Made by a program: the position numbers and the translations under genes
The notes under the pieces: model-generated
Told to the model about the DNA's origin: nothing
Database searches by the model: none
The model's input: only the letters and a program-made list of their open reading frames with translations
Source: Zygnema cylindricum
Taxonomy: Eukaryota > Streptophyta > Zygnematophyceae > Zygnematales > Zygnemataceae
Assembly: GCA_037447655.1 (NCBI GenBank)
Contig: JBBHKE010001884.1
Location: forward strand, 1 to 64,000
Direction of reading: 5' to 3'
DNA length: 64,000 bases
Shown here: positions 4,881-45,586 of the stretch, piece by piece
Position numbering within the stretch: the stretch's first letter is position 1
Layout of the letters: each line of letters starts with the position of its first letter

Positions 4881-5128
4881 ATGGCTCCCCTGGCACGCCA
4901 CGTGGCAGTCTTGTTTGTTCTTCTCGCATTCTGTCGTGAGAGTTTGGTGTATGGATCGAGTGTAAAATCGTGTTCTAACGTTCTTCGGCTTAAACCAGCC
5001 GATACTTGCCCATCCTTAAAGAGACTCTTCACAACTTGTACGTTTAAAGAGGCGAATGGGTTTGCCTGTACGGCAATGAGGCTGCGAGCCATTCAGAAAA
5101 GCTCAAAGCCATATGTCTGCCTTTGCAA
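4881..5128 (+). CDS. Exon 1: signal peptide and N-terminal LysM-like module
   Basis: The ATG at 4881 opens a hydrophobic leader ([17 protein letters not shown]) followed by a Cys-rich stretch with the LysM-like pattern [11 protein letters not shown], then FKEANGFAC, then a closing VCL. The same pattern occurs in the last exon of this gene. The exon ends in phase 2 at a GTGAGT donor (5129). The region just upstream (4730-4880) is GC-rich compared with the AT-rich surroundings, as expected near a 5' end. Confidence 0.8.

Positions 5129-45586: not shown

What the first reader, a model, noticed from the sequence alone, without database searches (positions are those of the whole stretch)
4881..45586. 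Apparently undescribed LysM-LRR-EGF-papain-EGF-LysM secreted protein
Seen: 23 exons with consistent phases give 1074 aa with signal peptide, LysM-like module, 8 plant LRRs, EGF-like modules, a C1A protease with Gln, Cys, His and Asn all present, and several C-terminal LysM modules. Known: LysM binds GlcNAc-containing glycans, LRRs bind protein or peptide, C1A cleaves peptides. Inference: a soluble glycan-anchored protease that could process microbial or cell-wall proteins, a plausible new immunity or symbiosis effector. I know of no family with this order, but cannot search.
Basis: partly seen in the sequence, partly recalled or inferred. Interest (0 to 1): 0.92.

Follow-up and report, generated by a model that had tools for sequence, protein, structure and literature searches.

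The report
Secreted algal papain with recognition domains
A green alga, probably one related to land plants, carries one very long gene for a secreted papain-type protease joined to protein-binding (LRR) and sugar-binding (LysM) parts, one of a large and apparently unnamed algal family that may let the cell cut chosen proteins at its surface.

Summary
23 GT-AG exons (4881-45586, +) give 1,074 aa: signal-like start, LysM-like module, LRRNT, 8 plant LRRs, EGF, C1A protease with Q514/C520/H657/N677, two EGFs, LysM array. It is one gene: a near-paralog in the same genome keeps the exon chain and an open frame (4 LRR exons, not 8; dN/dS 0.25 in the protease), and transcript-style entries of relatives join LRR, EGF, C1A, EGF and LysM in one chain. 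It is not an orphan: the named multi-domain relatives listed in our three protein searches are all zygnematophyceans (Closterium, Mesotaenium, Spirogloea), deposited as unnamed or hypothetical proteins. The C1A+LysM pairing was reported without function in 2019 (PMC6362431); my searches showed no report of the LRR-bearing form. Best reading: a soluble, glycan-docked extracellular protease whose LRR picks protein targets, most likely in biotic interactions. Function is inference; no transcript of this gene itself was available.

The parts
4881..5128 (+). exon 1: signal-like start and LysM-like module N (aa 1-83)
   Evidence: 98.8% identical exon in paralog
6099..6136 (+). exon 2 (aa 83-96)
   Evidence: weakest exon: short, paralog copy aligns only in part and is 32 nt with another acceptor
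6300..6432 (+). exon 3: LRRNT_2 cap (aa 96-140)
11797..11868 (+). exon 4: LRR 1
11941..23104 (-). intron insertion: Copia-type LTR retrotransposon with three LTRs (11941-12512, 17238-17809, 22533-23104)
23558..23629 (+). exon 5: LRR 2
24559..24630 (+). exon 6: LRR 3
25182..25253 (+). exon 7: LRR 4
25439..25510 (+). exon 8: LRR 5
25954..26025 (+). exon 9: LRR 6
26545..26616 (+). exon 10: LRR 7
36193..36264 (+). exon 11: LRR 8
37186..37556 (+). exon 12: LRR end, cap and EGF-like 1 (aa 332-456)
   Evidence: 91% in paralog; homologous exon at C966, C327, C270
38431..38616 (+). exon 13: linker and start of C1A, oxyanion Gln514
39343..39575 (+). exon 14: C1A with catalytic Cys520
39811..39951 (+). 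exon 15: C1A
40357..40576 (+). exon 16: C1A with His657 and Asn677
40770..40952 (+). exon 17: EGF-like 2
41534..41677 (+). exon 18: EGF-like 3
42486..42601 (+). exon 19: LysM 1, first part
   Evidence: no Pfam match of its own
42816..42905 (+). exon 20: LysM 1 end, LysM 2 start
44433..44555 (+). exon 21: LysM 2
44975..45172 (+). exon 22: LysM 3
   Evidence: similar to LysM 2, 0 of 1000 shuffles
45362..45586 (+). exon 23: LysM-like 4 and stop
   Evidence: divergent, similar to the N-terminal module

Best explanation
One gene of a zygnematophyte-type alga encodes a soluble, secreted papain-family protease. Its LysM modules dock the enzyme on GlcNAc-bearing glycan (on microbes, or in the alga's own wall or mucilage), its plant-type LRR binds a protein, and the docked C1A domain cuts that protein or its neighbours. 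Shown by sequence: exon chain, domain content, catalytic residues, signal-like start, no hydrophobic C-terminal tail, no I29 match, constraint on the protease, a large family in the genome. Inferred: glycan and protein ligands, activity, and that the main use is in interactions with microbes. Without I29, folding and latency must come from something else; the conserved linker just before the protease is my candidate.
Against: No transcript, protein or activity of this gene seen. LysM ligand not testable; the N- and C-terminal LysM-like modules are divergent, and LysM 1 has no Pfam match of its own. EGF calls rest on weak Pfam scores and conserved cysteines. Exon-12 region dN/dS 0.91 (33 changes). 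The model is of P0002 (40% identical over aa 380-1074), mean pLDDT 72. Nothing ties the family to immunity rather than wall remodelling.
Confidence: 0.5

Rival explanations
1. Same molecule, but for self: remodelling of the alga's own wall or mucilage glycoproteins, for example in growth, conjugation or zygospore formation.
For: Signal-like start and no anchor; named multi-domain relatives listed are all conjugating algae.
Against: No mating- or wall-stage expression data; LRR number differs twofold between near-identical paralogs, which a fixed self ligand would not require.
Confidence: 0.25
2. Scavenging or digestive extracellular protease held near the cell by LysM, with LRR as a mere spacer.
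For: Very large family; best PDB sequence matches are plant papain-type proteases.
Against: Does not explain a receptor-like LRR with LRRNT cap.
Confidence: 0.1
3. Recognition molecule first, with a protease fold that is dispensable or decoy-like in part of the family.
For: Ser replaces the catalytic Cys in 8 of 42 members; six of these proteins (seven core copies) form one clade, 100/96.
Against: The window protein and its paralog keep Q, C, H and N; the 8 Ser members carry no LRR in their Pfam labels.
Confidence: 0.1
4. Artefact: two neighbouring genes joined by the reader.
For: Introns up to 11.7 kb, with retrotransposons, between LRR exons.
Against: Paralog and database relatives keep both halves in one chain; exon-12 homologs precede the protease exons at C966, C327 and C270.
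Confidence: 0.03

Closest known systems
C1A+LysM lectin-type proteins of non-vascular green plants (Van Holle and Van Damme 2019, PMC6362431; passages and section 12 part 1 of 2 read)
   Same: Papain-type peptidase joined to LysM modules; said not to be retained in vascular plants
   Different: No LRR mentioned in what I read; no name, function or mechanism given; its supplementary table could not be read, so species and exact domain strings are unknown to me
Closterium, Mesotaenium, Spirogloea and EukProt proteins such as P0002, P0003, P0010, P0030, P0042 (unnamed or hypothetical)
   Same: LRR, C1A, EGF-like, LysM in one chain; no I29
   Different: 28-41% identical to the window protein; LRR numbers differ; some relatives carry a legume-lectin domain; an N-terminal LysM-like module was not looked for in them
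Papain-like cysteine proteases of land plants (papain, actinidin, ervatamin)
   Same: C1A fold and catalytic Q, C, H, N
   Different: No I29 match here; LRR, EGF and LysM modules added
Plant LRR receptor ectodomains (FLS2, PEPR1, GSO1)
   Different: No transmembrane helix by hydropathy, no kinase; protease and LysM follow instead

Membership tests
Peptidase family C1A (papain) | papain fold / Pfam Peptidase_C1 | tested here: met
   9.2e-40, aa 497-707; ervatamin-C 4.5e-28; fold tested on relative P0002 only
Peptidase family C1A (papain) | catalytic Gln, Cys, His, Asn | tested here: met
   Q514, C520, H657, N677
Peptidase family C1A (papain) | Inhibitor_I29 propeptide (usual in the cathepsin L/papain branch, not required for C1A as such; recalled) | tested here: not met
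   No I29 match at E up to 1 in the window protein, none at 0.001 in 42 relatives
Peptidase family C1A (papain) | peptidase activity | not testable with these tools
   none
LRR receptor-like protein | LRRNT_2 and plant LRR | tested here: met
   fold on P0002 only
LRR receptor-like protein | transmembrane helix or GPI-type tail | tested here: not met
   Hydropathy only: windows starting at residues 1 and 8 alone reach KD 1.6; last 60 windows at most 0.26
LysM protein | LysM domain above Pfam cut-off | tested here: met
   45.1 bits against 20.9
LysM protein | binds GlcNAc-containing glycan | not testable with these tools
   none
C1A+LysM combination of Van Holle and Van Damme | C1A and LysM in one chain | tested here: met

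The most novel reading that the evidence does not exclude
Zygnematophytes evolved a very large secreted arsenal of 'recognition proteases': receptor-type ectodomain parts (LRR, LysM, legume lectin) wired directly to a propeptide-less papain that acts outside the cell, instead of to a kinase, with LRR number tuned by exon duplication and a side branch that lost the catalytic Cys. An effector-style surface immunity without a membrane receptor.
Probability: 0.3. Interest if true: 0.82.

Novelty: new variant of a known kind. Interest (0 to 1): 0.58.

Why it matters
[quoted passage not shown] A large family there that joins receptor-type LRR and LysM parts to an extracellular protease would be a distinct way of acting on microbes or on the cell's own matrix, testable with recombinant protein. 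It also asks how papain-type enzymes stay latent without the I29 propeptide on such a scale.

Tried and rejected
Two-gene artefact: rejected. Orphan architecture: rejected. Chance frame: random intron stretches of the same length were never open (0 of 20,000); an unfair test because exons were chosen, so the weight rests on homology. LysM kinship of the N-terminal module: not seen to LysM 1 or LysM 3 (540 and 209 of 1000 shuffles as good), seen to LysM-like 4 (0 of 1000) and LysM 2 (1 of 1000); the C-terminal module itself is not significantly like LysM 2 or 3 (295 and 462 of 1000); LysM 1 against LysM 2 26 of 1000. A PDB chain joining LRR and C1A: none among the 60 rows shown of 601; the 50 rows shown in each are LRR or papain chains.

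Literature: searches gave 0 papers. Searches (1 paper; 82, 30 listed; 10; 6; 98, 25 listed) showed no title or abstract start on this family; PMC6362431 came from these listings. Passages seen by term search in PMC7289718, PMC11289646, PMC10945595, PMC7941945, PMC10834447 and PMC10762512: nothing on it. PMC11096116 (passages) counts 209 Pfam combinations unique to Zygnematophyceae; its supplementary list could not be read and may contain this one. The library is open-access only; no bioRxiv preprints are searched as such.

Not obtained: a structure of the closer relative P0035, a whole-genome LysM count (unanswered, not repeated), LRR status of most paralogs.

Results against the reading: exon-12 region dN/dS 0.91; C270 has an in-frame stop in the protease stretch, so some copies are probably dead; C1991 shows no LRR or EGF1 exon in the 6.9 kb read upstream; only 33 of 105 exon-16 places have an EGF-2 exon match within 3 kb among the rows listed, so many of the 105 may be partial, differently spaced or dead.

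Full report
The observation. I rebuilt the gene by eye from the sequence and by script. All 22 introns are GT-AG, the phases agree throughout, and the product is 1,074 aa ending with the TAA at 45586. Pfam finds LRR (LRR_8 3e-52, LRR_1 in 8 stretches), Peptidase_C1 (9.2e-40), LysM (9.6e-12, two stretches) and LRRNT_2 (6.5e-6). EGF models stay below their cut-offs, but many cysteines of EGF 2 and 3 are invariant across the 8 sequences of alignment A1. Residues Q514, C520, H657 and N677 are in place. Hydropathy shows a signal-like start and no C-terminal tail, so the protein should be soluble. The first module resembles the last one (score 72; shuffles 25.4, sd 5.0, 0 of 1000), which supports a related LysM-like module at both ends, both divergent.

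One gene, under constraint. A search of the same 352.8-Mb genome finds a close copy on C1786. It has 19 exons with proper borders once one acceptor is moved, an open frame and 980 aa. Aligned exons are 88-99% identical apart from exon 23 (84%); exon 2 aligns only in part. It has 4 LRR exons instead of 8, and its introns there are too short to hold the Copia insertion. dN/dS: whole 0.40, linker+C1A 0.25, EGF2-3 0.21, LysM 0.38, LRR 0.36 (97 codons), N-terminus 0.51, exon-12 region 0.91. Of four further paralogs read with flanks, C966, C327 and C270 carry the exon-12 homolog ahead of the protease exons; C1991 shows none within the 6.9 kb read.

LRR exons are duplications. Seven of the eight LRR exons (4-10) lie in a repeat family that includes intron sequence (60-86% to the reference over 145 nt; exons 4 and 6 87% over 166 nt, with further intron matches at 88%). 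A Copia-type element with three LTRs sits in the intron after LRR 1; its outer LTRs differ at 1 of 572 positions. A second Copia-like stretch lies in the intron before LRR 8.

A family, not an orphan. One search gives 21 relatives, with a profile, 227 matches (120 listed), in which C1A proteins with LysM or legume lectin rank first and ordinary C1A proteases, many with I29, follow, with a lectin-bearing Closterium entry further down (P0094); one search gives 50, mostly a second Closterium subfamily with no LRR in its Pfam labels. The named multi-domain members listed are Closterium, Mesotaenium ('Mesen1') or Spirogloea ('SM000281'; both labels read by me). P0002 and P0003 bear Trinity names, so are probably transcripts, with LRR-EGF-C1A-EGF-EGF-LysM in one chain. 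P0035, 70% identical, is an unbroken 494-aa frame on a 1,664-nt contig, where the window needs nine exons, so it is probably a transcript too ('lgn' read as the Logan assemblies, recalled). Among the 42 members scanned: C1 42, LysM 36, LRR_8 22, EGF 18, legume lectin 8; I29 is not among the 22 families matched. The tree (44 rows: P0001 twice, window and paralog added, P0004 left out) puts the window with its paralog and P0035 (100/100), near P0002/P0003 (93/75), away from the Ser25 clade (100/96). Long branches make the deep order unsure.

Missing propeptide, large numbers. In this genome PF08246 matches at 3 places, on three contigs that also carry C1 matches, whereas PF00112 had 303 candidates of which 150 were scored, all 150 over the cut-off. 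A query of exons 16-18 gave 161 matches, 150 of them listed: 105 places on 85 contigs match exon 16, 37 the EGF-2 exon and 8 the EGF-3 exon; 33 of the 105 have an EGF-2 match within 3 kb downstream. These are lower bounds for matches, but some hold stops and are probably dead copies. An I29 exon split by an intron could be missed, so 3 is a floor for the genome; for the family itself, 0 of 42 is direct.

Mechanism. Shown: signal-like start, catalytic residues, domain order, constraint. Inferred from known families: LysM docks on GlcNAc glycans, plant LRRs bind proteins or peptides, C1A cuts peptides. Together: a tethered protease acting near its docking site. I favour biotic interaction (0.5) over self-matrix remodelling (0.25) because LRR number differs between near-identical copies and copies are many; neither point is decisive.

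Known and new. Van Holle and Van Damme (PMC6362431, passages and section 12 part 1 of 2) report peptidase C1A associated with LysM in their plant set and say the combination was not retained in vascular plants. Feng et al. (PMC11096116, passages) count 209 domain combinations unique to Zygnematophyceae. I saw no text on an LRR-C1A-LysM protein (and passages). Hence a new variant of a known kind. The source may be Zygnema cf. cylindricum (359.8 Mb, Copia 29.8%, probably polyploid in that paper; here 352.8 Mb, Copia-rich introns, a near-identical second copy); this is a guess from size and content.

Noticed in passing
P0001, P0008, P0018, P0027-P0029, P0033, P0036: Catalytic Cys replaced by Ser in 8 of 42 family members, in 5 of them with Gln to Glu; a likely inactive or altered branch without LRR. 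Gene models of P0018 and P0036 are doubtful near this site; P0004, a gap in the count, shows similar Ser contexts.
   Followed up: partly
window 11941-23104: Copia-type retrotransposon, minus strand, with three LTRs and two internal parts; outer LTRs differ at 1 of 572 positions.
   Followed up: partly
window 28600-36100: Second Copia-like stretch (RVT_2 at 33140-33628) in the intron before LRR 8, with possible degraded terminal repeats 83% alike.
   Followed up: partly
window 4443-5337 and L039 11-904: Upstream region, exon 1 and part of intron 1 are 98.1% identical to the paralog, while the next stretch is 80% and most of the rest 80-90%: possible gene conversion.
   Followed up: no
P0005, P0014-P0017, P0019, P0037, P0041: Legume-lectin domain within related Closterium C1A proteins: another lectin joined to the same core.
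   Followed up: no
P0134-P0179: Large second, mostly Closterium, subfamily with C1A and usually LysM, no LRR in its Pfam labels.
   Followed up: no
G000, e.g. C569, C1744, C1824, C1385, C2586, C2027: Several near-equal 78-81-aa open frames with the C1A His/Asn exon at 50-53% identity, possibly amplified or dead copies.
   Followed up: no
window 50900-54400 and 57766-60811: Purine-rich and CT-rich degenerate repeat tract with strong skew, near further RVT_2 frames.
   Followed up: no
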